From positions 32,401,602 to 32,465,601 of the forward strand of contig JANVCC010000022.1 in assembly GCA_025345505.1 (NCBI GenBank): a stretch of DNA of 64,000 nt, given 5' to 3'. Each line of letters begins with the position of its first letter. The stretch's first letter is position 1. Position numbers and translations under genes: made by a program. Under the pieces are notes generated by a model, which was not told the origin of the DNA, did no database searches, and was given only the letters and a program-made list of their open reading frames with translations. This document shows, piece by piece, positions 15,326 to 47,200 of the stretch. This DNA comes from Todiramphus chloris collaris. Taxonomy: Eukaryota; Chordata; Aves; Coraciiformes; Alcedinidae.

Positions 15326-15475
15326 CTAAAAATAGTCTCTTCTTCTGGTTTCATCACTGATGAAGGATGGATTGTATTGTCCAGGGTAGATGCATGAATG
15401 TCGAGATCCAGGCAAACCAGTGTAGGGAGGATAAAGTCCATTTCTTTCCAGTTCAGGATTTCTCAGTCCAGTTGG
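15326..15475 (-). CDS. HEG1: HEG1 exon 23: last exon, KRIT1-binding C-terminus
   Basis: Acceptor TGCTGATACAG and TAG stop at 15326-15328; 49 residues. Reads PTGLRNPELERNGLYPPY, TGLPGSRHSCIYPGQ and YNPSFISDETRRRDYF. The last residues, ending in Tyr-Phe, are the known binding site for the KRIT1 FERM domain and are unchanged except for one Ser/Thr swap relative to human (...SDESRRRDYF). The 3' UTR follows to the left. Confidence 0.97.
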   Translation of the reverse strand, partial: PTGLRNPELERNGLYPPYTGLPGSRHSCIYPGQYNPSFISDETRRRDYF

Positions 15476-18400: not shown

Positions 18401-21400
18401 AACTACATGTGTACACACCCGTGCATCTGAGAGGTAGAATGAGATTGCATGCAGGACTTGTCCATAAAGGGAAATGAAAATAGCCTTAAATACACTCAGA
18501 CACCACTTGAGCAATGGACAGCAACCCTTTCTGTTGTCTATAAACTTCTGCTTTCTACTTAGCTTGCATTTTTGGAGACTGCTCCCCAGCTGCCTTAGAG
18601 CTCTGAGTGGAAAGGACATCTTTGCCTCTCCATCCTTAGAGGACATGATTGCCAGGTGCACACTTATGAGACACCCAGTTCAATTTTATAGCTTGGAAAA
18701 AAAAGAAAAACAAAAGATATGCCCCAAATGAAAGCACTTTGGTATCGCTGAGTAAACCACTTACTTAGTTACCCTATGTGTTAACCTGTGTTTTGGTCCT
18801 TCACAGCTCACACGTGGAGCACTAAGCGTGGTGTAACCCAGTGAGAGGATGCCTCCGATGAGCCAGGGCTGGCAGTGGTACCTACCGGCAGCAGGTGACA
18901 ACCAGGGCTATGCCCATGATCAGCAGAAGTCCTCCTCCCGCAGCCGCGATCACCACAGTGATGAGCTGATACGCTACAGAGAGGAAAGACAGAGGCTCAC
19001 TTAGCAACAGCCACGGGCTTGTAAATACTAATGTAAGCATATCCACAGTCCTCATGCAAAGGGATTAACAGTTTATTTCCCATCTTCCCACCCTCTGTAA
19101 GCAACAATGCCTTAAATTTTCAGGTTAAATGGATGGAGTTGGGAATCTCCTGCTGGAGGAAGAACAAACTCTCGTTTCCCTAGGGGATGGATTCCCTTCA
19201 CTGACAGGTCAGAATAATTCAAACAACATTTCATGGATTCAGCTTTGAATATCTTGCTTCAAGAGTCCCCACTATATATTCTATCATGACAGAGTAACCA
19301 GAGAAAGATCTTTCCTTAGCAGATAATATTAAGTCAACTTTGTCAAAGGTCAACAAAATAATTTTCAACAGAAAATGAAGAAACAAAACCCACCGACAAG
19401 AATAGCACATGCCTACTGCATTTTAGACATAGTCATTTGCAATTACTTTTTTCAAATCTCCCATTTCTGACGCTGTGGAAATTGCAAGAAACGGAACTCA
19501 GTACTTACGGTTTCCACAGTTGAATCCACCTAAGCCAAATGGGCAGCTGGTAACAGAAAACAACAGGGAGTTTCAGTGGCTTAGCTGTGCCAACAGGTCA
19601 CCACAGCAGTGTGAAGAAGGACAATGGGGTAGGAACAGGGTGGAACAGTCACCATACCTCACACAGGTCTCATTTTCCAGCTTATATCCATCTTCACAGG
19701 CTAGAAACACAGACGAGAGAAGGAACATGAGCATCACGTAGTGGTTGGTGCAGGGCAGGCACTTCCCACTGTGGGCAGCCTCACCGCGAGCCACCTTGGG
19801 CACCAACAAGTCAGCCTGTGCTGCTGGCACCTCAGGAACAAGGCACACTCTGATGTGATGCAATCTCCTCTGCTTCAGGCACTTAAGTTCACCAGGCACT
19901 GTCTTTGAAGGGACCATTTCAGGGCTTCCCAGCAGAGCTCGCCCTGAGCCTGGCACATGGTGGGCAGCTGGTATCGTAATTCCCAGAACCTCTTCTCTCC
20001 CAAATGGAACCTCACTGCACACTTGTACCACTTCACACAAGATAGGTGTAAAAAGTCTACAAGTGCCTCTGTTTTTTGTGTAGAAATGTGCTACTTTAGC
20101 ACTGATGCACATTATTAGTTACTTTTAAATGTTAGCACTGCAACAAAATCTCACGCAAACACAGCTGGAGTACCCAAAGTGGTATGTGATGTTTTGCCTC
20201 ATGTCACCTTTTTTAACTTGTCTTTCAAACTTGCAGCTAAATCAGATTTTGAAATATCATATTTTTCTATTGATTACTATAGATTTACTATTTTACTATA
20301 GGTTAGAAATTAAATTTATGTCTAAATAACCCAGAAAACTGCGTTGTACCAACTGTTGGTGAAAAACTGAAACCATCAATTCAAAACAAAGTAATTTCTG
20401 TGCTTATGGACAACTACCCGAGGAAATTCTACTGCCCTTCCAATGAGCAGTAAAGGTTGTCCAATGCATTGGACATACAATTCTAAGCTTCAAATTACCA
20501 ATAGGATCACTGTTTCTCTGCCGCCTTTTGCAGAGGCAGTGAAGGTGGGCGCTCAAAGACCTGAGTAGGAGTGACACAGATGGAGTTGCTTTGGGCAGAG
20601 GGACAAGCCAGGAGCAGCACATGCGCAGCCCGTGGGCATCTGCAAGACATCACCCAGGGGTCTGGGAAACCCCTGCAGCACACTTCACAGGGATTTTTTT
20701 TTTTTCCCCCCTCCAACACCATATGCCTAAAATTGGTGAAGCAGCAGCTCTCAAGCCCTCTTCCTTCTGCATTGCTCTCTAACCATAGAGAACACCCGCA
20801 GCTGAAAGCTCAGGCGCTCTCCAACTCCAGCAAGCGTGAGGAAATGTGTGGGGAGAAGAGGGGGCTGCTGGCAGGTCCCAGCTAAGCCGCAGCAAAGCTC
20901 TCTCCTCCTCCTCTGCTGCTCCCAGCACATCAGATGCCTCTTCCTCTCTGGCACAGACAACAACTGTGTTTTCAGAAACACTTAGTGCAGGAAGGGGAAG
21001 AAGGAAGAAAAGAAGGAGAAATGAGTAATGTTGTCCATTAGGATGGGTGGGTGATATCCTAGTAAGCCAAGAGAGAGCACTACTATTCTGCCTGGATTCA
21101 GAAATTTATGGCTCTTCCAGCATCAATAACAAGTGATATTGAGTCCAGTAGGGAGCAATGTGACTGTGACCTCCCCTTCATAATACAGGTCACAAAACTT
21201 CCCTGAATTTAATTCCAGTTTCAAATCAAATAGCTGAAGTGGAGCTGCGTTTTAGAGCGCCATCCAAGATTGATTTTAATATTTTCAGTGACAGAAATTA
21301 ACCACAATCCTGGGTCAGATGCTCATGAAGTTAATTTCCTCAGCCATTAAAAACATTCACCTTCTTTCTGGTCTGAATTATCCCAGTGTCAAATTCCAGA

Positions 21401-27400: not shown

Positions 27401-30400
27401 CCAGGGGCTCATCTGATCACTAAGAAATATGCAGTGTCTTTTTGGCAGCAAAGGGACAGCTGAAGTCACCATTGCACAGCCTTGGACAGGAATGAAGACC
27501 TGGGGATTTCGACAAGAGCATCTGCCTGGGGCCTCACTGTGCAATGACCACAAAGGCTGAGGATGAGCCAGAAGCCAGCAGGGAGAGAGTCCCGTGCAAG
27601 GCTGAGCTGAAAGCAGAACCCTTGGAGACTGCACATCTTCCAAGGAGCCTCCCTCCCCCTGGATCCACACGGTTGTTTGTGTTCACTCGCCAGCAGTAGC
27701 CATGAAGGCAGCATCAAGGCAATGCACCCCAGCTCCCCCCTCCTTTGGCAGCATCTCCAAATCACCTTCTCCAAACAGAGTTGGGATGAACCATGGCCAG
27801 TCCAGGAACAGCTAACAGGACAAACTGATGCATGCAATGATCTGGCTAAAAACACATGGAGAATGTACCTAGCCCCAGCCCAGGGGTCTTTTGGGGGCAA
27901 CTGATGTCACAGTATATGGGGAAACCACCAGCTCACACAGTGCTTGCTCTCAGCTGACTGAGGACCACATGGTTACCATAGTGTGGCTGGGACACTCCAC
28001 CAAGAGGAAGGTATGTTTGGGTGGGTGCTGCTGCTGTGCTTCATCCCGTGGAGTTTGACTAAGAACAAATGGCAGCAGCTGCAGTCCAACCCACCTCAGC
28101 ACCTGTGAGATTTACTGATGACTAATAAAGCCTAGAGTTACTGTTTTAATGTTTGACCTTGGAGGAGCACTAATGCCCTTTTGAGGTCTGGAAAAGGCAA
28201 TGCAGTCAGAAGACACTAGGAAAGGATGTGGGCTATGGAAGTGTGAACCCAGTCAGATCACAAAAAGGGCTTCAAGATTTTTGTGGCAGATGTGCTGTCT
28301 TACTCCAGATAGGAGCTGTCTTGACATCCTGGGCCGGGCAGGGGAGAGAAGCACGCCGAGATTTAAAATTGTACATCTCACCAGTCCTACTTACAGCAGA
28401 CTGGGATGTTTAAATGATAAAAAGGCTAAATCCTCACTACAGAGTCTGCTGGTTTCCCACAACAACCGCGAGAGACGCAAAGGGCACCTGTCCCATCAGC
28501 ACTGCCAAAGTCCCAGCAATGACACTCACCATCGCCAGGATTTCATCCTCGATCTGAAGGAGCTCTGCATACTTCCCATGGGTAATATTAAGTCTCAGGG
28601 GAACTTGGCCAATAAATATTCTTACTAAAAAGAAGAATAAGACAAGTCAGTTGGAACACATGTGTCCATGCCTTATGTAGCTGTGGTTTCATCCACCTTA
28701 CATGAGAGTCTGTCTGCATGGAAAATCTCTTCGTACAGTGGACAGAAAACTCCTATCTGAGAGTCGCTACCCCAATAAAGCAAAGCCCCTGCCTTGGGAT
28801 TTTTCCCAAGGGTTGCTGCAATGTTCCCACAGCCCCAGACAAATTCCAGAGCTCAATAATGCTGAATAGCCAGCATTTCACTGCAGCGTTCATACAGTTC
28901 CTATAGAAAAAGGACCCCATGAACACAGAGATTGCTGGGTCAATTTATGAACAAGACAGCTTCAGGTATCAAAGCTATTTATCATAATTTGGGGCAAACA
29001 TGTCAAATCCCTTACCCCACCCTGCAATGGAAGGAAAGCAGATCAGCAAAGCACTGGAGAAAGTACATTTGCATTTTTCCAATTGTTGGACAGAATGAGC
29101 AATGACATTTGAAAAGAGGTCCAAAAGATGCATTTTTCCGTGCTTAGATTCACATTTGATTCATGGCACCAGAATGCAATAATCCAAGTTGTCCAGACTC
29201 AGAGAGATAATATCCCTAAATCTTGTATTAAGTGTCATGAGATCCTCAGTGGAAATGAGAACTCAGAGCTCCAGTTTTATGTTCCATCAGAAAAACAAAT
29301 ACAGTTGCAGATAACATTACAAGCCTCCAATTCTTTCCCATTTTTTCCTATCCACAGAGCCTATCTTCACCACAAATTTTCTATCAGACAGCTCTAATGT
29401 AACAAGTCACCTTCACAGCATTTATATAATCTGCCCATATCCCACTTCAAGGCATAATCAAAACAACTCTCTAAATTAGAAGCTGACACATTCCAACTTG
29501 AAGAAATGTTTCAAAACACCCTTCAGGGACACCTCGCCCATGTTTCCTTAGTAAAATTTCCATGCCTCTAATCCTCACTGATGAAGGGTCAGAAGAAACT
29601 CTAGCAAAACAAATTCCCCTTTACAATGGGACATTGTAAATCCTTGAGAGTCCTCTAATAGGAAGGAGGGGGGCAGAACCTGAGTTCCAACTAATAACTG
29701 TGTTGCATGAAAAATGCTAAAGGTACCAAACAAGACCTTGATCTTACAAAGACTTCCACGGCTGCTTAGTTTTCCACGCATGGCTGATCCCACTGAAGCC
29801 AGGTTATACAGCGGCCCCACTCGCTTCTCCCAGGCCAAGCTCAGTCGCCCAGGTTTGCAGGGCTGGGAGCCACGATAAGCTGCTGAATGCTTTTTGGGGG
29901 TTGTAAAACACTTTAGGAACAGAAGGGTCACATCTGTCCTTACTAACAAGGCTGAGCCCACTGATCTGCTGCTGTGTTTTTAAGAAACCCTCAGCTATTG
30001 CTCCCCAGAGCAGCCCAACACGACAGGCATTAGACACTGCACTTGTATAAACAGTAAAGGGCTCTTGTTAAAAGTGGTGCCTGGGAGGAACAGTAAGCTC
30101 CTGGGCTAGTCTGAACCCAGGTTAATTTATTATAGAAGATTACAGATAATTATTCCCATCTTTTTCTCCCCTGTTTTTTACTTTTGTTTTCTTACCTAAA
30201 TTGCACTTTCCTTTTTCCAGCTCATACCCAAGAGGACACTGACAGATATAGGAGCCGTGAGTGTTGTTGCAGGTGGCCAGTGCAGGACAAGGATTGGAAA
30301 GACATTTATCCACATCTACAAAAGCAGAAAAAGAGGCTGTACTTACAGAATAACAAAAATCATCAACGGTTGAGCTAAAAGAGATGAACTTGGTTCCTCT

Positions 30401-33400
30401 TCTGTGACTGCCTGAGCATTACTAGATGCTTTATTGCATCATTTGCACTTACTGTTTATCCTGGTTTTAATTATACTGTTGGAGCTGAAAGAATAAATAC
30501 AAACTGTTCTCTTGAATATTCATTAAAAAGCTCTTGGGATCCAGTGTTGATACATGTTAATGCAAAGATCCAGCTTGTCAACAGCACTGCTCATCCACAG
30601 ATCTCTGGGTGTTTTTCAAAGACAATTATGCATGAAGGGACCAAAAAAGGGACCTCAACAGCCAGAGGACAACAGCAACACAGAAGCATGGGTTCCTTCA
30701 CTTTTCAGCCAAGTGAATTTGTATGAAATCCGATCCTAATTTCTGTGATCTGAAGCTAGGGCCTGAATACTGATAGAGTTTGTAGATCCCCCAGGAATGG
30801 TGGAAGCAGCTCTGGCTGCTGTCTCCTCCTTTACCTGGGCTGCAGCCTGCCCCATGCTAGGTTGGGGATAGCCACAGCAGAGATACTGCCTGTGCCACCA
30901 CTCGTAATGCACTTCCCACTGGGTGAGCAAGTGCTTGGGGAGCAGACACCAACGGTGAAACACAGAGTAGCAGGGGACTAATGACTGTATGCTCAGATTC
31001 TTCATAGATGGGCCAACTCAAACTGCAAATTCTGGAGAAAGTATCCAATACTTCCCTTTGAAAAAAAATGATGTCCTGGTCAAAAATGCTTTTGACAGAC
31101 CTTAGGCAGGACTGTGTACTTGTTGGTGACAAGGCACTACAAGACAAGCAAGACAGCCTACAAACCACTCGTGCCTATTTTGCAGCTCTGCAGAGCACTG
31201 TGGCAGAGGCAGGAAGGATGGGCTTTGCAGTTAAAGCACAAAGAGCAAGAGCCAAACCCTCGACAGTGCTGCGATACTCTGTGGCATCTAGCAGGATGGG
31301 CAGACCAGAGAGTCCTGAGCCAACTTCCATGTTGGGACACACCATTGGATCCAATCTCCATGTCTCAACTGGCTTGGCAGCAGCTGCCCCAGCATCAGCA
31401 AGAAGGAGGTTTGGTGCCTCTGATCTAAGCAGCCAGAAACGAGTGGGTGTACTTTAAAACATTGTCTTTCACTTTGCCATCCTTCAGTTTGTGCTTTGTA
31501 CAGCAGGGATGAGGGCAGGTTCTTCTGGCAGGGTGGTGAGTGCCCACGTACAAAGCACCATGTCCAAGTCAGCAGAAGGATCTTTTGTGTTCTGGCAAAT
31601 AGTAAAACTCAGTATTTATGGGAAAAAGTAACTTGGCAAAAGTGTTAATCAGTTGGTAAAAAGGATAAGTACCTTAATTTTTCAATTAAAAAAAATCCAT
31701 TCCCCTTCATACAAAAAACTTTTTTGTATGAAGCCAACAGCTAGAAAATTAAAACCAACCACTCTGAGAAATAACCTTTAAATACTCAATTATTGGATGG
31801 AATATATACTATTGCCTGTATTTCAGTGAGAATAACACAATTAGCACACACAATATCATGCAGTGACATGAGAGTCAGGCTCCTGAACCGTAAATGCACA
31901 ATCAGTTTCCATTCATGTAAAAAAAAGTTTGGTCCGTGCATTTACTTAAGAAGATTAGGAGCCTGGCAGTGGTAATAAATGATTGTAACAACACACCCAA
32001 CAAGACTACGGTACGTAGCTTACCACAAAAGGCAACAGGCCCTTGACTAGGAGGTATTTAGTGAGGTGGGGAGAAAATGACTATAGGTTGCAATGACAGA
32101 AGTTCCAACACAAATACCAAGTGCTGGTCAACCACTTTTTCTCATGAATAAGATAGATATTGGTTGATATTGTCAATTGACAAATGTAAAATGCACCCTA
32201 TGCTTACTCCTATACTTACCCAGAAGGCCAGTCAGCTTAAATCTCAAATTTCAGCTTAACGCTTGTATCAGAAATGTTCATGAAAATGCTCACCCTTTTC
32301 CAGCAGTTCAGCTTGATTGCTAAACCCTTAGCTTAAAAGTAACAACACGGAGACTGAGTTCTTATCCTTAAACCCTGCTGACACCAGACGAATCATATAT
32401 ACATACACTACCCTTCAAAGACCCTTAAAGTGGGACCCAGGAATTCCTGTCCCCCTCTCCCCTGACCCCACCACTGACGAGTGCCATTAGACACGTTACC
32501 TGTTGCTGGAGACAACATCCTCAGCCCATTTGTGCTGCTCGATGGAGGAGTGGTGGTTGGCTTGGTAGCAGCCAAAGTAGTTGTAATGCTCACAGTGGTC
32601 TTGCTTGTTGAAGTGGCTTCCGGCGGACTTGTAACGGGGATATTTTCCTCAGTGACTTTACCAGGCCTTGCAGTGGTGGGATCCACAGCTTCTGTGCTTT
32701 CACCAGTGGTATACACATGCTTAGTGACAGAGGGTGTTTGGGCTCTGTGGGTTTTCGTGGTACTAGCATCACCTGGCGTTGGCCAGGGACTGGCTAGTGT
32801 TGTCAGCACAGAAGGCTCCGCTGTGGTCAGTGCCATCGCAGGGACAATGATGCTGTGGTCTGTTGGACTTGATGAGGGACTAAGGGGTGCATCTGTTGAC
32901 CCAGCCTGTGGGGCACTGCTGGCAGTGGTGAGCAGTGGCGTTGCCTTTCCAAAGTTGCCCCCCTGGGCAGTCACAGGTCCAGGCGAGGCAGTCTCCGGTA
33001 CCGTCGCGGGAGCAGACACAGTCACAACGTGTCTACCAAGCTGCTCCATGGGCGCCGTAGGGAAAGGGGAGCCAGGGGTGGTGAAGGTGGTACTGTTTCT
33101 GGGCTGGTGTGTAACATTGTGTTTGCTGGTGCCTCTGGGAGAGCTCCCAGCCACAGCAGCTGTGGAGGGCACTCGCCTGACCACAGTCGTAGCTACAGAG
33201 GTTCTGGCTTGATCACTATCATTGGACTGCGAGACAGAGGACGTTGACGAAAACAGAGGCAATAAAGATGCCAGTGAATAAGCTTGGGAAAGCAATGAGG
33301 AAGTTGGGAAGGGCGATGATAAAGCCTGCAGAGGTGGTGAAGATGCCATCACAGAGGATGAAAGTGGCTCAGTTGATTTTGATGATGTAAATAAGTAAGT

Positions 33401-36400
33401 TGTTGGTGGTGTTGATGACAGCAAGTGATGCAACGATGACAGTGAGGAAGAGGCTGGAAATTCTGATGAAGACAGAGATGATCTGTCAGTGGTCAACAAC
33501 TCAGAGTCAGTGTTGAAGAGAGTTGTATTTTGTATGCTGTCTACAGACGCAGAAGTCAACAGTTTGGAAGAATGTACCAGCAACGGCTCTGTAGATGGCT
33601 CAACAAAACCTGCATCGCTGGATATGTTGCTCGTCCTGTCCTGTCCCACAGAAGATTTTGATGAATCAAAAGAGTTGGAAATTTCGGAAAAGAAGGTGGA
33701 ACTTTCTGAGGAGTCAGCAGAGGTGCTGCTATTCGAGATAGACAGGAGGGTCCTTTCTCCTCCTCTGGTATATGTGGTTGAAATGTATGTGCCGTCTGTA
33801 TGAGAAACCGAGGTCCTTTTCTCAGCTTCTATGCTACTGACTGGCTGATGGCTACTTGAAAAGCCTGGAGTAAAAGGACAAAAATGTATTAGAAAGGCAG
33901 AGTAATACGAAAGTATTTTAATGTAATATTTAAATCACTTGCTAAATACATAAAATATTCTTGTGTGTGAACAGGCCCACGCTCTTCAAAAAAATTAGAG
34001 CACTGTTCAAGCATGGGTATCGAATTAGGAGTCTTCTGCACTCCTTCATTGGTTCTAAAATGGTGAACTCACACAGACACAAGGCTCTTGTGAAACGTGT
34101 ACATTTCTAAAACATATTCTCCCGGTATTGCTTTTCCAATGAGATTGAGCACTTATTGTTCTGTGATACTTTGTAGAAAGCTAAGTAGGAAAACCCATCT
34201 GTTCTCTTCAGCACTCAGAATTTATAAAACTCATATCCTCTCCTCCATTCCCAACTAAAGACTATCCATCCTTTTCAGGCAATTTGGTTTTAGACACAGT
34301 AAACTTTGCCTTTGCAGGAGGAAATTATTACATTATGTTAATTTGCAGCTTATCATAAACTCATTGATTGAAAAATTTGCAGTTAGGAAATCCTAAAAAG
34401 AGTAGCACATCAGTCTGCAAAAAAATTCAGATTACTTTGTATAAAGGGCACAGTCAATCTTTTAACATGAATTTCAGGATGCACAGCTAAGTTTAAGAAT
34501 CTCTAAAAATAAAGAACAGAGTATTGAAAATTTGGTTTCATTCCACAGTTGGCTTAGGTCACCATGAAACATCTCTGAAAGCATCACCCAAAAAACCCCA
34601 GCTACAATGCAAAAAAAAAAGAAACAAACGTGGCCATCAAAACAGGAGAATTTCCCTGACTGGATTCGTGGCTTCGCTTCTGGAACTATTCCCCAGCTAG
34701 GTGGGGTCTGGCTTTGAGTTCTTTGATGAACACATCCCCGAGTGAACCTGCAGGTGGCATTGCATGTACTAATGAATGAGAACCTGTACAGAGCAGATAA
34801 ATGCAGGGCAATGTGAACTTCCCCCCTCCCCCAAAATATACACCAGGAGGCACTAACTTACTTGTGAGAGTGTTTTGGAAAGAAGAGTAAGTGGGTATCT
34901 TGGAGGAACGTGCAAAGGCTGTTTCTGTCGCCAAGCCCATGGAGCCCTTACTTGTGGTGGAGGCATTGGCCACCCCACTTTGCTCCACCGACGCTGGCTG
35001 AGCTGACCCAGGAGAGCTGCTGGTGGTTTCAGCATAGGAAGCGGAGCTCTCCGTGCCATCAGTCAGTGTGACATCCATTGCTGAGTGCAGCATCCTTTCT
35101 CCACCGCCAGCAGAGGTAGATAAACTGTATGCAGGATCAGTGATGGGGCTGGACATCCTTTCCTCAGCACTTGAGCTGCTTAGGGAGTGCTGGCTGCTGC
35201 CCACAGCTGGAACAGGATCGAAAAGCAGGTATCTGATTTTATCATCTCAGAGCAGAGAGCAATTGTGAGTTCTACAACAATTCTGTTTCAAAATGCAGAT
35301 TAATAAAATTGCACAATAAACACAGATTAAACACAGATTAAGTAGATCTCACGTTATCTATCACCTGAATGTGGATTTAACACAAAAAGCTAGTCCAAAG
35401 AAACAAGACTAGCCAAATACAGAGGGACAATCGGTTCTATTAGAGTCATAATGACTTATTTATGCTATTTATAATTATCAGCCCAACTCAGGCAGGTAGT
35501 AGATGTGTCCTATAGCAAGAAGCTACATGTCTCATTCCTAAGACTTTTTTGCTAAGTATCTACTATAACAGATATACAACACCAAGGAGCAGAATCACCA
35601 CAGCCTATAAATCCTGCCCACAACACCCGAAACAGCTCTGGCATGTGTTGGTGGTCATATCAACCTCACAAAGAGGGGAAGGGAGGGGCAGTGGATTTTT
35701 CTCTTAATTCAAATGCCACCCCAGAGTTCAGAAAAACTCACTGGAATGTTCACTGGCAGACGAGAAGTAGGTGGAGGTCCTGGATGAAAAGGTGACCTTG
35801 GGCTCTGGGTACCCTGCTCGGCTGGACAAGGCATGTCCTCCTCCAGGCCATGTTGTGGAGGATGGGAGGGAGCCAGTATGGGGCTCCCCAGCTGTGCCTG
35901 GGTGAGATGTGGGGCTTCCTGACGCTGTGCTCCATATGTCACTGTTAGCTGCAGCCTGAGATGTTCCCTCCTTGTGCCTGGAGAGTGGGCTTGAGACATA
36001 AGTGGTTTCAGTAGGAGCACCAGAAACACTTCTTCCTCTCTCTGGAATCACAAAGCAGAGATATACATAGATATACATAAAAATACATATTTTGTATATT
36101 AATATACCTTTGAGGCCTCTACAAAGGACTAAAACCTGAATACTTCAATCCCCACATCAGAGGTGGTGCTTAGTGACCAACATCACTTATTTAGTAAGCA
36201 GTGTTCCCAGATGATCTGTGATTTTCTCCTTTACACCAGGAAAATAAAATAGATTGGGTTACATGGTGTTTCTGAAGCAGAATGGTGGCAGGGAAGTAGG
36301 ACCTGGTCGTGAACGTCCTACAGAAAATCCCCTTTGGCAGACCAACAGGTTTCAAACCAATGCTGGTGGGACCCTGGCAGCAGAGCTAAGGTTGAAACAC

Positions 36401-39400
36401 ACAGTAACTGGATATAAGGAACAGCAAAAGGTCTACTGATTCCTTGCCACACCTTGTGCCAGGCTTCCCTGGTTGGAGGGATGAGGTCAAGGCTCCATGG
36501 CAGCCTTCACATTTGGCCTAGAAGAGCTGCCTGGCCATCTAGTTCCCAACACAAGAGGTGCTGCCCCAAGTCCTCCGAGGCAAATAACTCACCAACTGGG
36601 CTTACTAAAAAGGCAAATCTAGCTTAATGCTAGAGAAGAGAGAGCGGGAGCTTGGGAGTGGGGCAAAGGGGAGGGATGTCCTCCATGGCAAACCAGGAAA
36701 CCACAAGACCCACCTGAAGCTCTCGGTGAAGGCGAAGGCACCGAAACGCTGGAAGAAAACACAGGCAGTAGCTTTGTTGGAAGCTCACCGAGTCCAGCAC
36801 TGCTCTGCGAAACATCGCTCTGTCTCCCAGGGTCTGTTGCCAAAGAGGATGGCAGAAGGATCACATCCAAGGAGCTGGTGCGGGGTGGAGCGGGAGCAGA
36901 GCTCCCTGCCACGGTGGGTGCTGCGCGGGTGCCTGACACGGGCACCGTGCTCCTCTCCCCGCTGCTGGTGGCTGTCACCGAGCCAGGCGCACTGGTGAGA
37001 GGAGCAGCAGGCAGGCGTCCTCCCGTAGCCGAGTTCCCTTCTGCCAAGAAAGGGCAGAGCAGAATGGATTTCTACACCCTGAAGTATAGACAGGTGGGCA
37101 TGCTCTCTGCCATCCCCACCCTTAGGCTGGCAGCACAGGTACAACGTGGCAGAAGACCCAAACCTGGAGCAAATGCTAACTGTGAAGAAACAACCCTTTC
37201 CTGCTCCCAGGGGGACACCCTGAAGAGGGGACTAGGAACCAATCCCGGGAGTGCTGTTGGGTTGGGTTCCCTTCCCTCCAGTGCTGCTCCTGGTGCCGCG
37301 GAGCCCGCAGTGAGCAAGGTGGGGTTACAGAGGCACCTAACTCTCCCACACTGGAAACAAAGCATGGCAGGCTTGTATGGAATCAGTACACACTGCGTTT
37401 GCATCCCAGGGCAGGAGTCAGGAGTGACTGGTGCTGGCTCCTGCTTGTATAAACACAGCCAACGGGGCAGTCTTGAGAATGAATGTGCTGTCTCAGAAAA
37501 CACAGCAAATCTTGGGGCCAGACTGCTCTTGCAGTAAGGCTTTTTTTCCCTGTCACCAAATTCAAAATCCAGCTAATATATTTTCCTCTGGAAGCTGAAA
37601 TTTCCCTCCACAATGCCCAATGCCATTATCCAGCACATTCTAGCACGCCTTCACTCCTCCATGCAGACCAGATGTTCGAAGTCTACAGGAGGAAGCCCCA
37701 CAGGTATGGGCAGTGCTCACCTGGAGAAGCACTTTCAGAAGCAGATGGCAAGCCTGTGAGCAACGGGTCTGCAGGCGATACAGCGCCACTTCTGCCATCA
37801 CCACTTCTGGCTCCCAGAGAGGACCAAATATGGTCTGGAGAGCTGATGGTTTCAGTAGCAGAGGGGGAAATCTCTGTTGTTTGGGCCAGTCTGGTGCTGG
37901 CTGGCAGAGACCTTAATGTCATCCCTCCACCCTTGGTGGCTGTTGTAGAAATGGAGGTGCTGGCAGTGGAGACATCAGTTCTTCTCTCTGTTGACAGGAT
38001 GCTGAATGACACATGGCTGCTCCCAGTGGCTAGGATGTGATAAAGAAACAATTTACGTTTTTACACATGTGAAAAAGATTTTCTTCCAGTAAAAGCCAGA
38101 GGCAACAAGTACACTCACAAGTAGAAAATATGAGATGTCAATCTAGAGGAAATAGGAAAATTCCGAATATGTGAATTCTCCCTAAAGAAATTTGTCTTCC
38201 AAAAAACATGGTTTGACAGCAAGAAAAGCCCTATTACATAAAAACTGTTGAACTACTAATGCTGTGCACTTGAGTTCACCATTATGTTCCTGAGTACTCC
38301 ATGCTGCCAGAACAAAGACACACCGTAACAGCCCAGAAAACCCTGGAAATCAGTTCAGACAAGACACAACACTGAGAAATGTGGAGGCCTTATAGAAGTC
38401 TGAAGAAATGGGATCAGGACAATCAGGCCCCTTCAGCACTGTATCAGTATCTAAGACCAAACAGCATCATGAAGAACCTCAGGGACCACATTCAAAGTTG
38501 CCTTAAATTTGTTGAGCTGGTTCAATTACTGGGAAGCAGCACGGACCTTCCTACCAAGGAGTAGGACAGAGGGCAGGAACTGAAGTCTGGCCCCTGGGAC
38601 TGCAGGGACATGATCTAATCCTCACTTGCTTAGTTCTCTTGCCTATAAAATGGAGACAGCAACTGGAGATAGTAAGAAAGAATTGTGATTTGAAAGGTAA
38701 CTATTTTTCTTGGTGTAATGAGATTTTACATGCATGTGCCCTCTCTGTAAAAAAAACCAAACCACGTTTTTTGGTCAAGAAAGAGATGAAATATTTCAGA
38801 CACAAAATCACACTGCATCTTTCCAACCAATATATTCCGCAAAGCAGAATAGAGAAGGCAAGTGTAAGGTACAGGAACACTCCTCCTTTTACTTTCAAGA
38901 AAAATGGTATTTCACTTGTAAATTCAGCTCACCTGGGGAAGGACCTTCCAAAAGGGAGTGAGAAGGTGTTAGTGAAGGATCTGCCACCTGCTCGGTGACA
39001 CCTGTGATTTCCCTGGACCCATGAGCTCCATAAGTCTCTCTCACAGAAGATGCAGATGAGGACTGGACTGTGCCCAAGGTCCTGTACATGCCACTGCCAG
39101 ACGTGGAGACTTCTGTCGCCCATCGGCCGCTGCCCGTGGCAGACCTGGGGGGCCTCCTGCTGCTCCCAGTGGCAAAGGCTGGAATGAAAGCGCTGGTGGG
39201 AGAGGAAGCAAGGGGTTTTTTCTCCATTGTTGAGCTGTCAACTGGCCGGTGGCTGCTTCTGACACCTAAGGTACATTAAAACCAGGTTTGATTTATGTAT
39301 ATGGAGCTATACATTTGAGGGACTGTATAGTGTGCTTTTCTATACTGTTTGTTAAGAAATTGAGTCGACCAAGTTCTCAAACTGGAAAAAGCACTGCTGT

Positions 39401-42400
39401 GGTAAGAGGTGAATCCCTTAGGTTCAAGCACACATGGCTTAAAAAAGCCATGAAAATCTCACCTTAAACCCATGGTTTTTGACTGCAGGCTGTGCACAAT
39501 ACCTGACGCATGCATTTAAGCTGCCTTTGAGCCTGTTTAAATCAGGAGTATACATATCTAACTTCAAACTAAATCTAGAGGATGGCTAAACCAGGCCTGG
39601 ATTAGGTTTTCTACTGACCATCCAGAAAGCCAAGGTGCTGTCTCAGTGATGGGCTGAGAGCACGGACATGGGGCCATGCCCTCCACAGCACTGGGCACCC
39701 AAGTGCAGGCACAGCTGGACAGAGCCTTGCCCATAAGATGCTCAGAAACATCTCAACACCCCAGCGTGGCATCTGACTCAGCCTGATTTAGTCCATGTTC
39801 AGCTTTACCCAGCACGCGACTTTCATTAGCAATGAGGACATTGGTGTTTTTCACTTTTTCACCCAAAAGCTGAGATCCACCCCTGCCCTTCCCAACAGCT
39901 TTGCTGAAACCCCAGTGCAGCCTGTAATAAAAACATCCATGTACCCAACAGTGACTGATGGCCGCTATCTAAAGAAAAACAGTGTGGAGATGAAAAATCT
40001 CATCCAGCCCCAAAACAGACAATGTTCAGACTAACGAATTTACCTCTGGAGGTACTTTCGGAGGCAGACAGGGAGCTTGTGAGCAAAGTCTCCCTGGAAG
40101 GTGCTGGGAGAACAGTGGCTTCCTGAGAGCTGTTAGAATGGTGTTTCCTGGCCCTCGAGGAGGAGAAGGTTCCCCCCAAAGAACTGGTGATGTCAGTGAT
40201 GGTGGCAGATCCCCCTGTCACCCCAGCTGTGAGGCCATCTGCAGGGGACCCCGATGCCCCAGCTGTCACACCGGGCACATCAGCATGGTGAGCATCTGAG
40301 TGCAGCGTCACCTCTTCTGCAGCTGGGATGCTCTTGGGTTGGTAATGGCTGCTAAAGGCTAAAAAATGAGAAAAGAAATACAAATGCATACACGTAAATG
40401 AAAAGAGCTAGGTAGGTTTCGTCTTGCTATCAGGAGGTGTAGACAATGTATATGTAAATATTCAATACAGAAACATTTAATACTGGGAAATCATTAAGGC
40501 AGGGGAAAAAAGTGGTCTCTATATAGGAACTCCTGAAGTTATTGCTTGCAAAATTCAACCGAAAGTTTTCAAGGAAAATCAATCCTCCTCTTCCAACAAG
40601 AATAATATTTATCCATAGTTTCATTTCTGTGAAATGCTTTTTATTGTACAGAATGTGCCAAATACAATATTATTCCTTCTTTCTTTAAAATAAAAAGGAT
40701 GTATTTTGCTTATAAAGAGTCTTTAAATAATGTTCTGAGTTATACAGCTAGCTATCAAAACTCACTTGTGGAAGTGCTTTCTGAAGCAGACGGTGAGCCT
40801 GTGAGCAATGGGTCTGTGGCACCTCTGCCACCACCACCCTGGGCCCCCAGATACACCCCAGTGGACCAGGTCTGGTGTGAAGAGCTGATGATTTCAGTAC
40901 CAGAGGTGGGAATCTCTGCCGTATTGGCCAGACTGGTGCTGGCTGGCAGAGACCTTAACGTCCTCCCTCCATCCTTGGTGGCTGTTGTGGAAACAGAGGT
41001 GCTGGTGGTGGGGAAATCTGAAACTCTCTTCTCTGTGGCCGAGACATTGGATGGTTGGTAGCTGCTTCCAATGGCTACAGCACAATAAAAAAGAAAAAAA
41101 AAAATCAAAACAAAACAGGATTTACACATGTGAAATTATAAACAGATGGATCCGTTTTCTCCCCAGATGCTTACACCACACATACGGATATTAAGCATAG
41201 GAAGTTTTCAATCTGGACAAAGTGCTCTTTTGGAAATGCATGATACCTCTCACTGCAGGAAGACCTTGCACAAAGCATGGGGCTCCCTGCCAGGACAGAA
41301 TGGCTTCATGAGAGCTGGGGCAGCGCAACCAGCAGGGAAGCAAAGGGGACAAGGACTGCACTGACTTGCCTTTAAATCCCACCTTTGCTCCAAGACTGGT
41401 TGAAATCAGCCCAGGCTCTCTTAGTACTTTATAGTAGCTTGAACGTGGCATCAAACAGCAAAGGGGAGAAACCTCAGTGCAGCCATGCTCCCATCGCAGC
41501 CTGCAGCTCGCTGCACATCCCAGAGTTTAACAGGACACAGGGAAAAATGCTTAAAGAAGCACAAAGCAGGGTAAAATAACCAACTGTAGACTAACCGAGC
41601 TCACCCATGGCAGTGCTTTCCGAAGCCAGGCGAGAAGGGACAAGGTGATGCTCCATGGGGGCTCCAGGGAAATGTCCCCGCGCTGGGGCCACGGAGGAAG
41701 GCTTCGAGGCCAGGGGCTGAGCCATGGAGACAGGCACTGCCCTTTGGATACTGGACCTTGGGTTTTCTGCAGCCCTGATGCTGCTCCCAGCAGCTGTGAC
41801 AGAGGGAAGGGATGCATCCATGTGAGAAGCCTGGAGATGTGTTTGCTCCTGACAAGCCTCAGGCCCAGGATAAGGACTTGGTAACAGCAAAGTTTTCAAT
41901 GAGATCACGTGGAGTGGGGGAAAGTGTTTGTTTTTGAGGGCTCCAGATGATCTTTTGGGTTTGTTGTCCTGTACTGGTTTTTGAAGCACAGACATCTCAC
42001 CCTGTCTGGACGAGAGCAAACCCACCTGGAGTGGCCATGAGTGTGGGTTACCAAGCTCACGCTCCACTGCGGTGAGACCCACTGCTCACACAGGGCTGGG
42101 GCCTCGCCTTGGCTCTGCACCTGGCACTGAACCAGCCAAGGTATTGTGCAGCTGCAGATGCCCACCCTGCACAAAACGCAGTGATAAGGTGCAAAGATGT
42201 TTGGGTTTTTTTCCTTAAAGTGGAAAATATTGAGGATTTTTGGACCAAATTATTTTTTTCCACTGCTTTTTCCTGCTTCCAGCAGGGAATTTCAGCTAAC
42301 TATGCAAATAATAACACATGGAGTGCATGCAGAACACAGCATCTTCTCTGGTGCAAGAAAGCAAGAGCTGTATAAAGGCTTTTCAAAGGTATAAACCAAA

Positions 42401-44181
42401 TCCATGGGCCAGTAAAACTCACCTCCAGAAGCACTGTCCGTGGCAGGCAATGTTGCGAGCGAAGGGTTTGTGGAGTCCTTTGTGACATCCCTGGGATGTA
42501 GCACGATGTGGTTTGTACCAGTATGGGTACTGGAAGCTGGGATGGAGGACTGGGGCTGTCCTGTAGAACCAGGGAGGGGGGTGCTGGGGTGAGGCTGCAG
42601 TGTCCTCCCATCACTCCCTGAGGGGCTGGGTGAAGTGGCTGCAGTGCCTGTGGGAGGGCTGCCAGGCAGCTCCGTGCCCACCCAACCACTCGCCGGTTGA
42701 GAGGGGCCACTGGTGCCTGCAAGGCAATAGGGGAAAGCAATGAGAGAGCATGGAGACAGTACGAGTCTCCCACCCAGAACCGTCTGATGTCACTCACTGC
42801 TGTCATCCTCCACCTCCCCCAGCAGCCTGTGGTCCCCTTGCCTGTACTCTGCCGACAGCAACTTTGTGTTTGGGAGCCACAATGAGTAATTCATAATTTT
42901 CAAGGCCAGGAGAAGCTGCACAGATTCTTCTCTCCACCCTCATGCATGAAACAAACCAGAAGATTGTCCTGAGCCCACGCTGAGGACCGAGTGCCAGATG
43001 TAGCAGGCAAAGCTCTAGCAATGCAGGGGAGCCAGGCTTAACTAACGTCTGGTTTCTCCTGGGAACAGCATCCACCTTGTTCCCAGGTTGAACTGGGATG
43101 TCTCACCCAAGTGATGAGTCCCCACGGATGAAGGCAGCAGCACTGTCCTCGTCGCGTTGTCAAACACTGCCACATCGGAGGCCCCGCGGTGCCCACCCAG
43201 AGTCCTCTCAGCTGAGTCGGCGCTGACGGCTGCAGAAACCGCCAGTGTCCTCTCGGCAGCTGCAGGGATGCTCGGAGAAGTCAGAGCTCTTTTGCCTCTC
43301 TCCTGACTGCTCACAGCATGGTGATGGCTACCAGAGGCTGGAAAACAATGCAGAGAGGGTCACGTTTTCCCTGGACAAGATAAATTAGGGTCTGAAGTGG
43401 CAGCAATGTCACTCACAATGACACCCAGCCCTGCCATATGCAACAGGTAGGGTCACAGTTGCATCCCCCATGTGTCCTCTATTTAACACAAAGCACAGCT
43501 GCAAGAGGCACTGCTGGGAACAGAAGGTTTCTGTCACCAAAAAAATAGATTTCAAAGTTTGTCTTAATTTGTGCATGGTAAAAGAAATACAGATTTAAAA
43601 AACAAAACGAAAAACCAAACATTAAAAATGCAGAAGGCAGTAAGGAGCTTATGCCACGACAGCCAGCACCTGGCAGCCCGGGCATGCCAGCTCCACACTC
43701 TAGTCCCAAAGCAGGACAAAAATAGAGGAATTAAAAGAATTAAAGAAAACCTCTATGTTCATATCTCAGCAAGATTTCATCTGAGGTTATCAGGAAAAAA
43801 CTGATGTGGGGACAGGGCAATTGGCACAGCCTTGCCCTGCTGGTGTGGGAAATGGGCTTTGATTCAGTTCATGCTTATAAAAAGTACATTGGTTCACTCA
43901 TGACCACAGTCCCACCAAATGTGGTGAAGATTATGAACAAGCCCAAAGATAAGCATTCACTTGCACGATCTTCATGTGAGAACCTCATTTTAACTCGGGC
44001 ATTTATAATCTACGTTGGCTTCATGATGGGCTCAGCTCCTCCTGGGAGGATCTGTGGGGATGACAGGGGTCTCCACTCTGCATGCAGCATTCAAGCTTTA
44101 TGGATGGGCAGGACTCCCTAGGGTGCTTCTGGGTGATGAATAACAACAGTGGCAGCTCTTGAGAATCATCACCATTGTGAC

Positions 44182-44217
<36 letters not shown>

Positions 44218-47200
44218 AGCAGAGCAGCTTTCCTGAGACTGGATTTCTTCCAAAATTCTGAATTTCTATCAGCAGGGAGGGAATACTTCCTAATCCACTG
44301 GCTCTGCTCGGTCCGTGGGCTGGGTAAGGCAAATGAGGACCCTCCCATTGATAAAACTCACTGGAAGGATGGCTGCGGGCAGGCAGGTGGGTCGCTGTCC
44401 CAGCAGACAGGCTGTCAGGGGGTCCTGCTCCCAGTGGGGTGACATCCCCCCCGACAGTGGGGGGACCAGTGCGCCTTGTGGCCCCGCTCGCCGCTGGCAC
44501 TGCACTGTGCCTGGCAGGCAGCAGTGCCCGCTCTCCACTCCAGTCCAGCATCGTCACCAGCTCCACGCTGTTCATGAGAGCACCAGAAGGCCTTATCTCC
44601 ATGGCCGAACTTCTTCTTGCCTGGTGGCTGCTTTTGAGGACTGAAAGAAAAAACAAGAAAATCATTAAAATCCCATCAGAGCTGGACACGGAGGCTCAGC
44701 TCATTGCAGTAACACCAAGGACAAGCTCTGATCTCATTTACACCAGAAAGAATTTTGCATAATCAAAACGCAGACATGAAATTTATTTTTAGATTCACAC
44801 CAGTGGAAATCAGATTGGTCCATAGGGGCCAAATGCCAAAACCCAAGTTTTGTGGATAAAATTAATTCAATTCAGCAGCCTCACGCTTTTTTTGTGTGTG
44901 TGTTAGGAGAAATAAATCTTTAAAGAAGCAAAAAGAAAGTCTTAAACAAATAACCAAGCAATGCGGAGTCCATAGGAGGAGTGTGTAGGTCTCCAGAGAC
45001 AGTGGCCAGATGGAGCCCAGTACAGCCCATGTGCCACAACCTAAGCACGTGATGGGAGCAGGAGGGCCCCACAGCTCTTCCCCTCTATTGGCCAGCACTT
45101 GCTGAGTGCCTGACCTCAAATCCCACCAGCTCCAGAGTGCTGGCACGAAGGCAGCTGAGAACTGCAGGGCAAACAGGAGGGTTGGCATAATCCATCCAGC
45201 CATCACAAGGCACCAGGACAGAAGAGATCAGTGCATGGTGTGGACTACACTGGCCATCCAGGTGCTGAAGCACCCCAAGATGATGGACATTTTGGCATAT
45301 ATGACATTCATGTCTATGAGAACATGAGAAACAAGATGGAAAGGTTGTTTTTGCATCTGCAGATCCATTTTCTGTATGCAAATGTGGCCAGAGACCCTGC
45401 TCCATCCTAAAAGTGTTTGGGTCTTCTCTCTCGCTCCTTCTGGAAGGCTACTCTGAACTCCCACCTCTCCCATTGTCCAGAATCATTTTCTCATTTCATC
45501 AGAAAATGAATAAAAATATTTATGGAATAAATGCTGTTTCCCAAGCCAGCATCACCTTTTAGCTTAGCTAACTCTTGCCCTCCCCCTGCTTGCTCCCCAC
45601 CATGCTGAAGTGTAACAACAGCAATTGCATACCCTATTTGCACCAGTTGCTTCTGCATTTCTACCATCCACTGTATCCCATGGACACAAAAATGACTTCT
45701 CCCAGGCGTGTCAACAGGCATTGCATGCTTTACAGGATCTCCAAAAGCACACAGATGGCTGTGTACATCTCTAGAATTAAACATGCCAAAATCAGGCTCT
45801 AAGCAAGGACTGAAGGGGTTACTCCATTGCCAGCTTGTTGGCTCAATCATTAACACTGATCAGGAGCAGCAGGACTTGGTGTGGTGGCTGTAGCTTCAGC
45901 CTGGGGTTTTCCAGCCTGATACTGCCTGGAGCAGAGCATCTAGTGACAGCTGCTGTGAGTGGTTCCAGTGAAATTTGCTGGGGGAATTTGGGTTCCTCCT
46001 CCATGGTACTCAACCAGGGCTGCACATCAGACACACAAAAGCCAGCAGCAACCATCCCTGTCCTCCATTACAGCCCCAAGTCTTGGCTGGCACTGCAGTC
46101 CCAGATGTTCTTCAAAGGCCACATGTCAAAGTGAGTCCAAATCACAGCTATGTAATCTGAAATTGCAAGATCCCAGTTTTTGCCATATTCCTTAGGAAAA
46201 AAAACATGATCTCTGGGCTGGAATAGCCCATCATATGCTCCACTTGCTGAGTGGGCAGAACGGGAGCCTAGCTAGGGAGAATGGAATGTAGGATGACAGG
46301 AGCTGAAGACTCTCAAGAAATTAAGAAAAGTCCTATGTTTTGGGAGGGGAACTCTCCCCACTTAGCAGCTTGGAGATCCAGCACGCTACGGGGCATGTCC
46401 TGTCACACACACGGCATCTCGAAACAGGGCAGCTGCTAAAGGGTTTTGCCCAAAAGCAGAGACTTATGTTGAACCTTCTTTTGTTGAAGGTTAAGCCTTG
46501 CACATCTGTCCTTGGTCTCTAAGCACTTTCTGTAAGAAAGCTGTGCCTCAGAGAAACACCCATGGGACACCTACTCCTCCTTGCTCTACATATCCTTTGG
46601 AGTGGCTGTACCTGCCACACCACAGGTGGCATTTCAGGAGTGGTTTCCACAGCCACATCCGCAATAGCTTCAACAGGAACTCACCAAGAAAAAAAAAAAG
46701 AGATATGTAGGTAGGACAGCCTGCATTTCATCCTGGGAGTCTGAGCACCACGAGGTCCAAGGAAGCAAGAGCTGCAGTAGAGCAGAGCCTCTTGAGTGCC
46801 TTTACAGACCTGGCCGTGGCTGCGATGCCCAAGAAGCCGAGCACACCAAGCAGCCACTGCCGTATGGAGCCCACTGTGAGCCATCTCCTGCCCCACGTAA
46901 CCAGCTGCTTGCTGTTGCCATTTGGACAAGGGGATGTAAAGTCTCAGGGGACGCTTGCTGTGCTCATTTGCAAGCCAATACCCAGCCTGTAATTGTAGCC
47001 CGCAAGTCCATTTATAGCAGCCCCAGATGCTGAGAAGTCTGGGTGTGCTGGAGGGTGGCACACTGAATTGGTCTCCCTTTCCCTCTTGCTAAAAGCTTTC
47101 AGCTGGGCAACCCATGCTCCCTGTGCCCCAGCAGCCAGCTTTACTGCACAGAAAAAAGGCAAAGCAGCAGATGCTTAAAGAAACCCTATGGGGATGAGTA

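What the first reader, a model, noticed from the sequence alone, without database searches (positions are those of the whole stretch)
32500..44640. HEG1 mucin domain is an array of about twelve related phase 1-1 exons
Ten of twelve mucin exons start with variants of one head motif, roughly x-G/S-S-S-H-Q-P-x-S-S-x-x-A-E-K-R (for example exon 8 VRSSHRPVDSSTMEKK, exon 13 FSSSHQPVSSIEAEKR, exon 6 IGSSYQPSNVSATEKR). Many share a middle motif T-x-x-G-G-x-R-T-L-R-S-L (exons 6, 9, 12, 13; weaker in 2, 3, 4) and a tail S-A-S-E-S (exons 5, 6, 7, 9, 11). All twelve are phase 1 at both ends. The domain therefore looks built by repeated exon duplication, not by tandem repeats inside one exon. Motifs of the same kind that I recall in human HEG1 suggest an ancestral unit of about 100 residues, expanded or retained as separate exons here. 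The predicted protein is about 570 residues longer than human.
Basis: partly seen in the sequence, partly recalled or inferred. Interest (0 to 1): 0.8.

Follow-up and report, generated by a model that had tools for sequence, protein, structure and literature searches.

The report
Exon-by-exon mucin repeat in HEG1
The sugar-coated stalk of the blood-vessel protein HEG1 is built largely from copies of one roughly 114-residue unit, each copy on its own removable exon, and in birds two of these exons keep overwriting each other's middles; published work on the human protein describes this stalk as having no repeats.

Summary
Largely confirmed and extended. Twelve phase 1-1, stop-free mucin exons lie at 44640-32500 (minus strand) of a bird HEG1 gene. 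They are related beyond chance. The head motif is significant at the acceptor in 8 of 12 exons (reader: 10). Profiles tie E2 and E6 and E8-E13 to one unit (93.7% or more; E2 over 45 columns only) and E7 at 72%. E3-E5 stay doubtful. Turtles show the unit plainly: up to 15 contiguous copies of about 114 residues; the gharial has 12. A turtle-only profile finds units in 113 of 113 bird, 74 of 74 mammal and 43 of 43 turtle proteins, none in shuffled ones. Mammalian unit starts mostly fit published human exon starts; human exon 6, about one unit long, is a proven cassette. Two papers say human HEG1 has no (typical) tandem repeats.

New: array ends are positional orthologues, while middle units evolve in concert. 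Bird E6 and E9, 3 kb apart, have orthologous heads (100/99) but bodies repeatedly homogenised within species or clades (AU p=3e-6). The window's introns, and E8 between them, are spared: gene conversion inside the exon. Birds also lost EGF1; a fossil remains here. Expression and function are untested.

The parts
63753..63948 (-). Exon 1: signal peptide and Pro-rich start, ends in phase 1
44362..44640 (-). E2, mucin exon, 1-1; head significant; unit 93.7% over its first 45 columns
43107..43337 (-). E3, mucin exon, 1-1; head significant, profile match not (1%)
42423..42716 (-). E4, mucin exon, 1-1; weak unit match (39%)
41605..41793 (-). E5, short mucin exon, 1-1; tail significant, weak profile (39%, 26 columns); filled in 46 of 113 bird rows
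40766..41074 (-). E6, unit; interior homogenised with E9 by gene conversion
40044..40358 (-). E7, unit (72%); head and tail significant; ostrich, eagle and window copies one clade (99/95)
38933..39265 (-). E8, unit (98.4%); single orthologous clade in 16 birds (100/98)
37721..38029 (-). E9, unit; interior homogenised with E6
36714..37040 (-). E10, unit without recognisable head (95.4%)
35742..36041 (-). E11, unit without recognisable head (97.0%); orthologue of gharial unit 10 and turtle unit 13
34862..35206 (-). E12, unit (99.7%); orthologue of gharial unit 11 and turtle unit 14
32500..33864 (-). E13, long mucin exon (454 aa) whose first ~114 aa are the last unit (99.9%); by place and length the counterpart of human exon 7
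30852..30956 (-). Decayed EGF1 exon (3 of 6 Cys in frame, frame slip; by eye no AG at the expected edge)
30196..30315 (-). EGF2 (calcium-binding type) exon, 1-1
18886..18973 (-). Transmembrane exon
15327..15475 (-). Last cytoplasmic exon, ends with the HEG1 peptide of PDB 3u7d

Best explanation
HEG1's extracellular stalk is a modular rod. One unit of about 114 residues equals one phase 1-1 exon, so exons can be duplicated, lost or skipped without breaking the frame. The unit has a head (SSHQPxSxSATEKR), a short conserved block that may form a beta hairpin (TYISTTFTRGGERTLRSLTN), a Ser/Thr-rich stretch for O-glycans and an end block (FTEPSTEPLL). The array arose by exon duplication before turtles, crocodilians, birds and mammals parted and was later resized: 15 units in the two turtles looked at closely, 12 in the gharial, 12 exons in this bird (8-9 clear units), 1-5 detectable in mammals. 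End units keep position and identity; middle units evolve in concert. In birds E6 and E9 repeatedly copy each other's interiors by gene conversion, while their heads, the introns (as far as this window shows) and E8 between them are spared. SHOWN here: exon structure in this bird, homology, positional orthology, exon-interior homogenisation in protein, whole-unit differences between annotated isoforms. From a paper: human exon 6, about one unit long, is skipped or included. INFERRED: that bird exons are spliced as cassettes in tissue, that unit number sets stalk length and glycan load and so the surface accessibility and mechanics of HEG1-KRIT1 signalling, and that heads are spared because they had already diverged too far to pair or carry exon-specific splicing signals.
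For: Gene model. Motif and pair tests. Profile-profile: eight bird exons at 93.7-99.9% and E7 at 72%, four controls at most 0.23%. Seven-unit Emydura profile: 15 contiguous units in P0137 and P0143, 12 in the gharial; 1352 domains in 249 proteins, 0 in a window-shuffled copy of the same set. Turtle-only profile (49 units): 113 of 113 bird, 74 of 74 mammal, 43 of 43 turtle proteins with at least one unit, 0 shuffled; langur P0226 unit starts 308, 419, 531 against a human exon 4 start near 305 and 531 (exon 6, or exon 7 when 6 is skipped). Orthology of array ends with strong support. E6/E9: head tree separates E6 from E9 (100/99); body tree pairs E6 with E9 inside Anas, Oxyura, Struthio, Rhea and Apteryx, 8 label changes (7 forced by starred branches), AU p=3e-6 against one E6 clade. 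E8 and E12 are single clades in 16 birds. In the window's DNA only exons match each other at E 1e-3 (3 hits, no intron-intron hit); E6/E9 flanks are no better than shuffles although E6/E9 dS is only 0.39, at which jointly copied introns should still align. Isoforms of one genome drop whole exons (E3, E5, E6, E9, E8+E9, E9+E10) or, in turtles, exactly 114 or 228 residues in several comparisons. Human exon 6 with/without by cloning and RT-PCR (PMC5374711 passages).
Against: E3, E4 and E5 are not firmly units, and E2 matches over 45 columns only. E4, E5, E10 and E11 lack the head by test. Most exon pairs in the bird taken alone are not significant (53 of 66 with z of 3 or less). No RNA data were seen; isoforms are annotators' models. 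Exon borders outside this bird were not seen in DNA: in turtles they are inferred from isoform steps, in mammals from the literature; human HEG1 itself was not among the proteins listed. One langur isoform (P0227: 375, 499, 589) does not fit the human borders. Some isoform comparisons gave no clean unit step (Trachemys P0146 and P0149, Trachypithecus, Chelonia; Calypte differs outside the mucin region; Pelodiscus 111 aa, Bos 116). Mammalian units are poorly resolved on the tree apart from the last, whose link to E13 is itself weak (97/35). The head tree rests on 22 columns, the body tree on 73. In Neoaves the E6/E9 excess is weak and absent in columns 41-60 (0.71 within, 0.71 across clades). 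Structure models are weak and disagree in extent (mean pLDDT 52 and 55). pN/pS for E6/E9 is 0.59 (0.39-0.95), only mild constraint.
Confidence: 0.87

Rival explanations
1. The exons are unrelated Ser/Thr-rich filler; the motifs are composition noise.
For: Low-complexity regions often give false similarity; E3-E5 are weak; 53 of 66 pairs have z of 3 or less.
Against: Composition-matched shuffles and same-gene Ser/Thr-rich controls give nothing; turtle units align end to end at high score.
Confidence: 0.01
2. E6 and E9 look alike because each bird lineage duplicated a whole exon anew, not because of gene conversion.
For: Whole-exon duplication built the array; the full-length E6+E9 trees alone would allow it.
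Against: The first ~22 residues of E6 and of E9 form two clean clades across 26 birds (100/99) while the bodies pair within five species; the window's introns do not match; E8 (16 birds) and E7 (3 birds) stay orthologous between them.
Confidence: 0.05
3. The array is an old vertebrate feature that birds and turtles merely kept, and mammals lost or blurred; there was no expansion in sauropsids.
For: Units occur in mammals, turtles, gharial, tuatara and birds; first and last units are orthologous between gharial and turtle.
Against: Turtle and gharial middle units group within species or lineage, which points to later duplication or homogenisation. No fish, squamate or certain amphibian HEG1 was examined.
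Confidence: 0.35

Closest known systems
Canonical membrane mucins (MUC1, MUC4, MUC12, MUC16)
   Same: Long O-glycosylated Ser/Thr-rich repeat region on a membrane protein (in HEG1 followed by EGF domains).
   Different: Their repeats lie in one large VNTR exon (PMC13345508, abstract and passages); here each repeat is its own 1-1 exon and carries conserved non-mucin blocks.
Schistosoma SmPoMuc mucins, and modular spider silk genes as told there (PMC2576457, passages)
   Same: One repeat per exon, alternative splicing, concerted evolution ascribed to gene conversion.
   Different: SmPoMuc repeat exon is 27 bp; there introns are homogenised and exons differ between clusters. In HEG1 the exon interior is homogenised and the window's introns are not.
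Abalone VERL repeat array (PMC2704960, passages)
   Same: Array of ~153-aa repeats in which repeats 3-22 are homogenised while the first two evolve independently.
   Different: HEG1 units are separate exons among diverged introns, both array ends are stable, and in birds two non-neighbouring units convert over part of their length.
CD44 variant exons (recalled, no call)
   Same: Symmetric cassette exons lengthening a glycosylated stalk.
   Different: I know of no shared repeat unit among them; not tested here.
Human HEG1 as described (PMC5374711, PMC6155162; passages)
   Same: Ser/Thr-rich exons 2-7, exon 6 a cassette, last one long (456 aa; 454 here).
   Different: Both papers state that there are no (typical) tandem repeats; a turtle profile finds units in all 74 mammal proteins tested, human not named among them.

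Membership tests
HEG1 | KRIT1-binding C-terminal peptide | tested here: met
   match to PDB 3u7d_B, E 4.7e-12; binding itself not tested
HEG1 | Ser/Thr-rich region, EGF domains, transmembrane segment, in order | tested here: met
   EGF1 is decayed here and missing from all 113 bird rows
Canonical tandem-repeat mucin | Repeats inside one large exon | tested here: not met
   one unit per exon, introns between
Canonical tandem-repeat mucin | Dense O-glycosylation | not testable with these tools
   S/T/P fraction 0.28-0.51 per exon; human HEG1 is glycosylated per PMC5374711 (passages)
Tandemly duplicated symmetric exon array | Same phase at both ends of every exon | tested here: met
   12 of 12 exons 1-1
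Tandemly duplicated symmetric exon array | Exons homologous to each other | tested here: met
   8 of 12 exons at 93.7% or more, E7 at 72%; E3, E4, E5 inconclusive
Tandemly duplicated symmetric exon array | Cassette use in RNA | not testable with these tools
   isoform models only; human exon 6 by RT-PCR in PMC5374711
Concerted evolution by gene conversion | Paralogous copies closer within species than orthologues, over a bounded tract | tested here: met
   E6/E9 body against head; strong in palaeognaths, waterfowl and gamefowl, weak in Neoaves
Concerted evolution by gene conversion | Tract edges seen in DNA of several species | not tested
   only this window's DNA was at hand

The most novel reading that the evidence does not exclude
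HEG1 is a length-tunable endothelial mucin: each exon is an interchangeable unit with a small hairpin, exon choice sets the height of the HEG1 glycocalyx over the KRIT1 signalling complex, and recurrent gene conversion, confined to exon interiors, keeps unit bodies alike while heads stay exon-specific as splicing identity tags. Human exon 6 would be the surviving tunable unit.
Probability: 0.3. Interest if true: 0.82.

Novelty: new variant of a known kind. Interest (0 to 1): 0.68.

Why it matters
HEG1 works through KRIT1/CCM signalling in heart and vessels (recalled) and is a mesothelioma antigen, yet its stalk, about 70% of the mature human protein, was described as non-repetitive (PMC5374711, PMC6155162; passages). 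A repeat unit that equals an exon gives the stalk a grammar: units can be counted, deleted one by one and followed through evolution, and the human exon 6 cassette becomes one unit of a series. The E6/E9 case is an unusually clear natural record of gene conversion bounded inside an exon, the opposite of the intron-homogenising pattern described for other exon-repeat genes in PMC2576457.

Tried and rejected
Chance similarity of Ser/Thr-rich sequence: rejected. Further unit exons or remnants elsewhere in the 64 kb: a six-frame scan with the iterated unit profile found only known exons (10 of 12 at E below 0.05; not E3 or E4); of twelve exon-specific profiles one, E8, gave one extra hit (E 0.03) on the other strand opposite E3, taken as chance. 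These profiles held the window's own exons, so those self-hits prove nothing; independence rests. Extra units inside E13 after the first: none convincing. A solved or curated domain for the unit: on P0135, P0137 and P0178 no Pfam or NCBIfam model passes its cut-off there (the HK, spectrin and thiM hits of P0137 stay below theirs), although the protein database's own precomputed lists give PF02110 to P0137, P0139 and P0144 and PF24611 to P0140, which I take as spurious; no PDB sequence matches outside the EGF and C-terminal parts of P0135 at E 0.01 (P0135 only). Structure: two AlphaFold runs on the last unit, mean pLDDT 52 and 55; both place a hairpin near residues 29-39, only the first shows more strands; no fold search was made on such weak models. 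Dating by dS: pairs other than E6/E9 are near or past saturation. Two hits, a frog protein (P0141) and a mussel protein (P0179), were left out of the counts as not HEG1-like; P0141 had no unit. Papers: HEG1 with 'exon duplication' 0, HEG1 with 'turtle' 0; the listings of five other HEG1 searches showed no title or abstract start on repeats in HEG1. 'Not in print' covers only this library and these searches; apart from passages of PMC5374711 and PMC6155162 I read none of the listed HEG1 papers.
Full report
WHAT THE WINDOW HOLDS. The minus strand carries a bird HEG1 gene (the C-terminal 354 residues are up to 97% identical to bird HEG1 proteins). A model of 23 exons with consistent phases at every junction gives 1951 residues. 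Its last exon ends with the HEG1 peptide of PDB 3u7d, and tblastn with bird and tuatara HEG1 proteins places the EGF, transmembrane and cytoplasmic exons. The twelve mucin exons E2-E13 lie at 44640-32500.

ARE THE EXONS RELATED? Yes. Anchored at the acceptor, the first 17 residues score 6.14 on average, against -8.70 (sd 1.78) for random internal windows, 0 of 5000 as high; tail blocks also exceed all 3000 draws. 13 of 66 exon pairs reach z above 3 (E6/E9 29, E9/E13 11.4, E6/E13 11.1, E12/E13 9.3); Ser/Thr-rich chunks from the rest of E13 reach it in 0 of 36. Leave-one-out scoring puts the head in 8 of 12 exons and the tail in 5, with E11 marginal.

RELATIVES DECIDE IT. Three protein searches brought in HEG1 of birds, turtles, gharial, tuatara and mammals (20 hits; best 120 of 475; best 120 of 191). 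I saw no squamate, fish or human name in those listings. In the turtle Emydura the unit can be read by eye: seven head-to-tail copies of 113-115 residues. A profile of those seven finds 15 contiguous units in Lepidochelys (P0137) and Macrochelys (P0143), 12 in the gharial, 2 in a tuatara fragment and 4 in elephant, and none in the same proteins shuffled in 40-residue windows. A profile from turtles alone (49 units) finds at least one unit in 113 of 113 bird (3-10 each), 74 of 74 mammal (1-5) and 43 of 43 turtle proteins (3-16), 0 in shuffled ones; these rows include isoforms, fragments and several proteins per species, and some hits are partial units. Profile-profile comparison of 63 turtle, gharial and tuatara units with bird-exon alignments gives E13 head 99.9%, E12 99.7, E6 99.4, E9 99.0, E8 98.4, E11 97.0, E10 95.4, E2 93.7 (45 columns), E7 72, E4 39, E5 39 (26 columns), E3 1.0; four controls at most 0.23. 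E10 and E11 align from unit column 11-13 on, so they have lost or replaced their heads.

THE UNIT IS AN EXON IN MAMMALS TOO, AS FAR AS PAPERS SHOW. The legend of figure 3 in PMC5374711 (passages) gives human exons 2-5 as residues 107-530, exon 6 as 531-630 and exon 7 as 631-1086; PMC6155162 (passages) puts the end of exon 3 just before Ser305. Langur units start at 308, 419 and 531 in an isoform of 1389 residues (P0226), and elephant units at 302, 421, 536 and 627, in fair agreement; another langur isoform (P0227: 375, 499, 589) does not fit. Human exon 7 (456 residues) is by place and length the counterpart of E13 (454). The same paper cloned HEG1 with and without exon 6, so a unit-sized exon is a proven cassette. 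Both papers state that HEG1 lacks (typical) tandem repeats.

HOW THE ARRAY EVOLVES. A tree of 93 units shows positional orthologues at the ends: E13 = gharial 12 = turtle 15 (99/94), with the last mammalian unit beside them (97/35, so weakly); E12 = gharial 11 = turtle 14 (100/99); E11 = gharial 10 = turtle 13 (100/97); gharial 1 = turtle 1 (100/96); gharial 2 = turtle 2 (100/98). The middle behaves otherwise. Ridley units 6-11 have a sister copy within the species at 0.94-0.99 identity and snapper units 6-11 at 0.81-0.98, while the two species share 0.76-0.93 at the same position (unit 11 of the snapper is an exception: 0.84 within, 0.93 between). Units 1-5 and 12-15 are more alike between the species (0.81-0.96) than within either one. 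In birds the columns of each exon are at least 60% filled, of 113 rows, in 113 for E12, 112 for E13, 111 for E7, 110 for E8 and E11, 109 for E2, 108 for E6, 107 for E10, 103 for E4, 101 for E9, 90 for E3 and 46 for E5; 37 rows have all twelve; some absences are isoforms. By eye, oscine songbird, gamefowl and waterfowl rows lack E5, three barbet/woodpecker rows lack E4 and E5, and about a dozen other rows lack E5, some as isoforms.

GENE CONVERSION INSIDE AN EXON. E6 and E9 lie 3 kb apart with E7 and E8 between them. In 16 birds E8 and E12 each form one clade (100/98, 100/100), but E6 and E9 each need 4 label changes, and single clades are rejected (AU p=0.008 and 0.011). Cut by position, the cause is plain. 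In columns 1-20, E6 and E9 of one clade share only 0.26-0.46 while orthologues of different clades share 0.56-0.69. In columns 21-100 the two exons of one clade share 0.58-0.97 and orthologues of different clades 0.46-0.75. The signal is strong in palaeognaths, waterfowl and gamefowl and weak in Neoaves, where columns 41-60 show none (0.71 within, 0.71 across clades). In trees of 26 birds, heads (22 columns) give an E6 and an E9 clade (100/99), whereas bodies (73 columns) pair E6 with E9 within Anas, Oxyura, Struthio, Rhea and Apteryx, 8 label changes, 7 forced by starred branches, AU p=3e-6. Both exons therefore existed in the bird ancestor, and their interiors have been copied between them several times since. 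In the window's DNA, E6 and E9 match over 329 aligned positions at 73%, from -3 to +5 of the exon edges, with an ungapped 170-nt core at 82%; 120-nt intron flanks are no better than shuffles, though dS is only 0.39. The tract edges in other birds were seen in protein only.

CASSETTES. I compared isoforms within twenty species or assemblies. Whole-exon differences: Grus E5; Pezoporus E9 or E9+E10, and Neopsephotus E9+E10 (each with another E3 state); Corvus E3; Zonotrichia E9 or E8+E9; Ficedula and Melospiza E6; Pogoniulus E9. Turtles: Gopherus 114 or 228 residues, Chrysemys 114 (plus 6 gained), Chelonoidis 114 or 228 (plus 75 gained); two Trachemys isoforms exchange one 114-residue stretch for another; Pelodiscus 111 (plus 26 gained). 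Mammals: a squirrel drops the third unit (86 residues), a dolphin two units or one stretch of 100, a yak 116 residues. Not clean or outside the mucin part: Trachemys P0146 and P0149, Trachypithecus, Chelonia, Calypte, squirrel P0186. These are annotators' models whose RNA support I did not see.

WHAT THE UNIT MAY BE. In the 186-unit alignment R37 is the most informative column (2.81 bits); others stand at H5, E14, the block Y26-I-S-T-T-F-T-R-G-G-E-R37-T-L-R-S-L-T-N44, E53, E60, Q69, Q76 and F89-T-E-P-S-T-E-P-L-L98. AlphaFold puts a hairpin in the first block with modest confidence (mean pLDDT of residues 31-40: 77 in one model, 63 in the other) and leaves the rest mostly without structure. The picture is a short structured bead followed by a glycan-bearing string; this is inference. 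No curated Pfam or NCBIfam model above its cut-off, and no PDB sequence, covers the unit in the proteins tried.

FUNCTION. Known for HEG1 (papers, partly recalled): cytoplasmic KRIT1 binding, heart and vessel development, heavy O-glycosylation. My reading is that unit number tunes stalk length and glycan load above that signalling tail. Nothing here tests it. Mild constraint on protein sequence is seen between E6 and E9 (pN/pS 0.59, 0.39-0.95), which conversion also affects.

NOVELTY. Exon-per-repeat arrays, mucins and concerted evolution are each known; PMC2576457 (passages) describes a mucin family with one repeat per exon where introns are homogenised and exons kept apart. HEG1 shows the reverse, with a long unit carrying conserved non-mucin blocks. 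Seven searches of the held library that named HEG1 (listings only) and two on the general theme listed no report of repeats in HEG1.

Noticed in passing
window 30852-30956 (-): Fossil of the EGF1 exon: score 72 to turtle EGF1 against a shuffle maximum of 55 (0 of 200 as high), but a frame slip, only 3 of 6 Cys in frame and by eye no AG at the expected edge. None of 113 bird rows has EGF1, 7 of 7 turtle rows have the 39 residues and the gharial has EGF1+EGF2, so birds seem to have lost it after parting from crocodilians. An older pelican model (P0014) reads part of the stretch in another frame.
   Followed up: partly
E5, window 41605-41793 (-): E5 is missing from most bird rows (filled in 46 of 113), seemingly lost in oscine songbirds and in gamefowl/waterfowl and, with E4, in barbets and woodpeckers (by eye).
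   Followed up: partly
P0137 and P0143, residues ~98-1809: Ridley and alligator snapper HEG1 hold 15 contiguous units; the middle ones (6-11) are largely homogenised within each species.
   Followed up: partly
E10 and E11, window 36714-37040 and 35742-36041 (-): Both have lost the head motif though the rest matches the unit; the acceptor may have moved inward.
   Followed up: no
window ~48480-48930: A run of N (assembly gap) in the long intron 1, seen in the translations.
   Followed up: no
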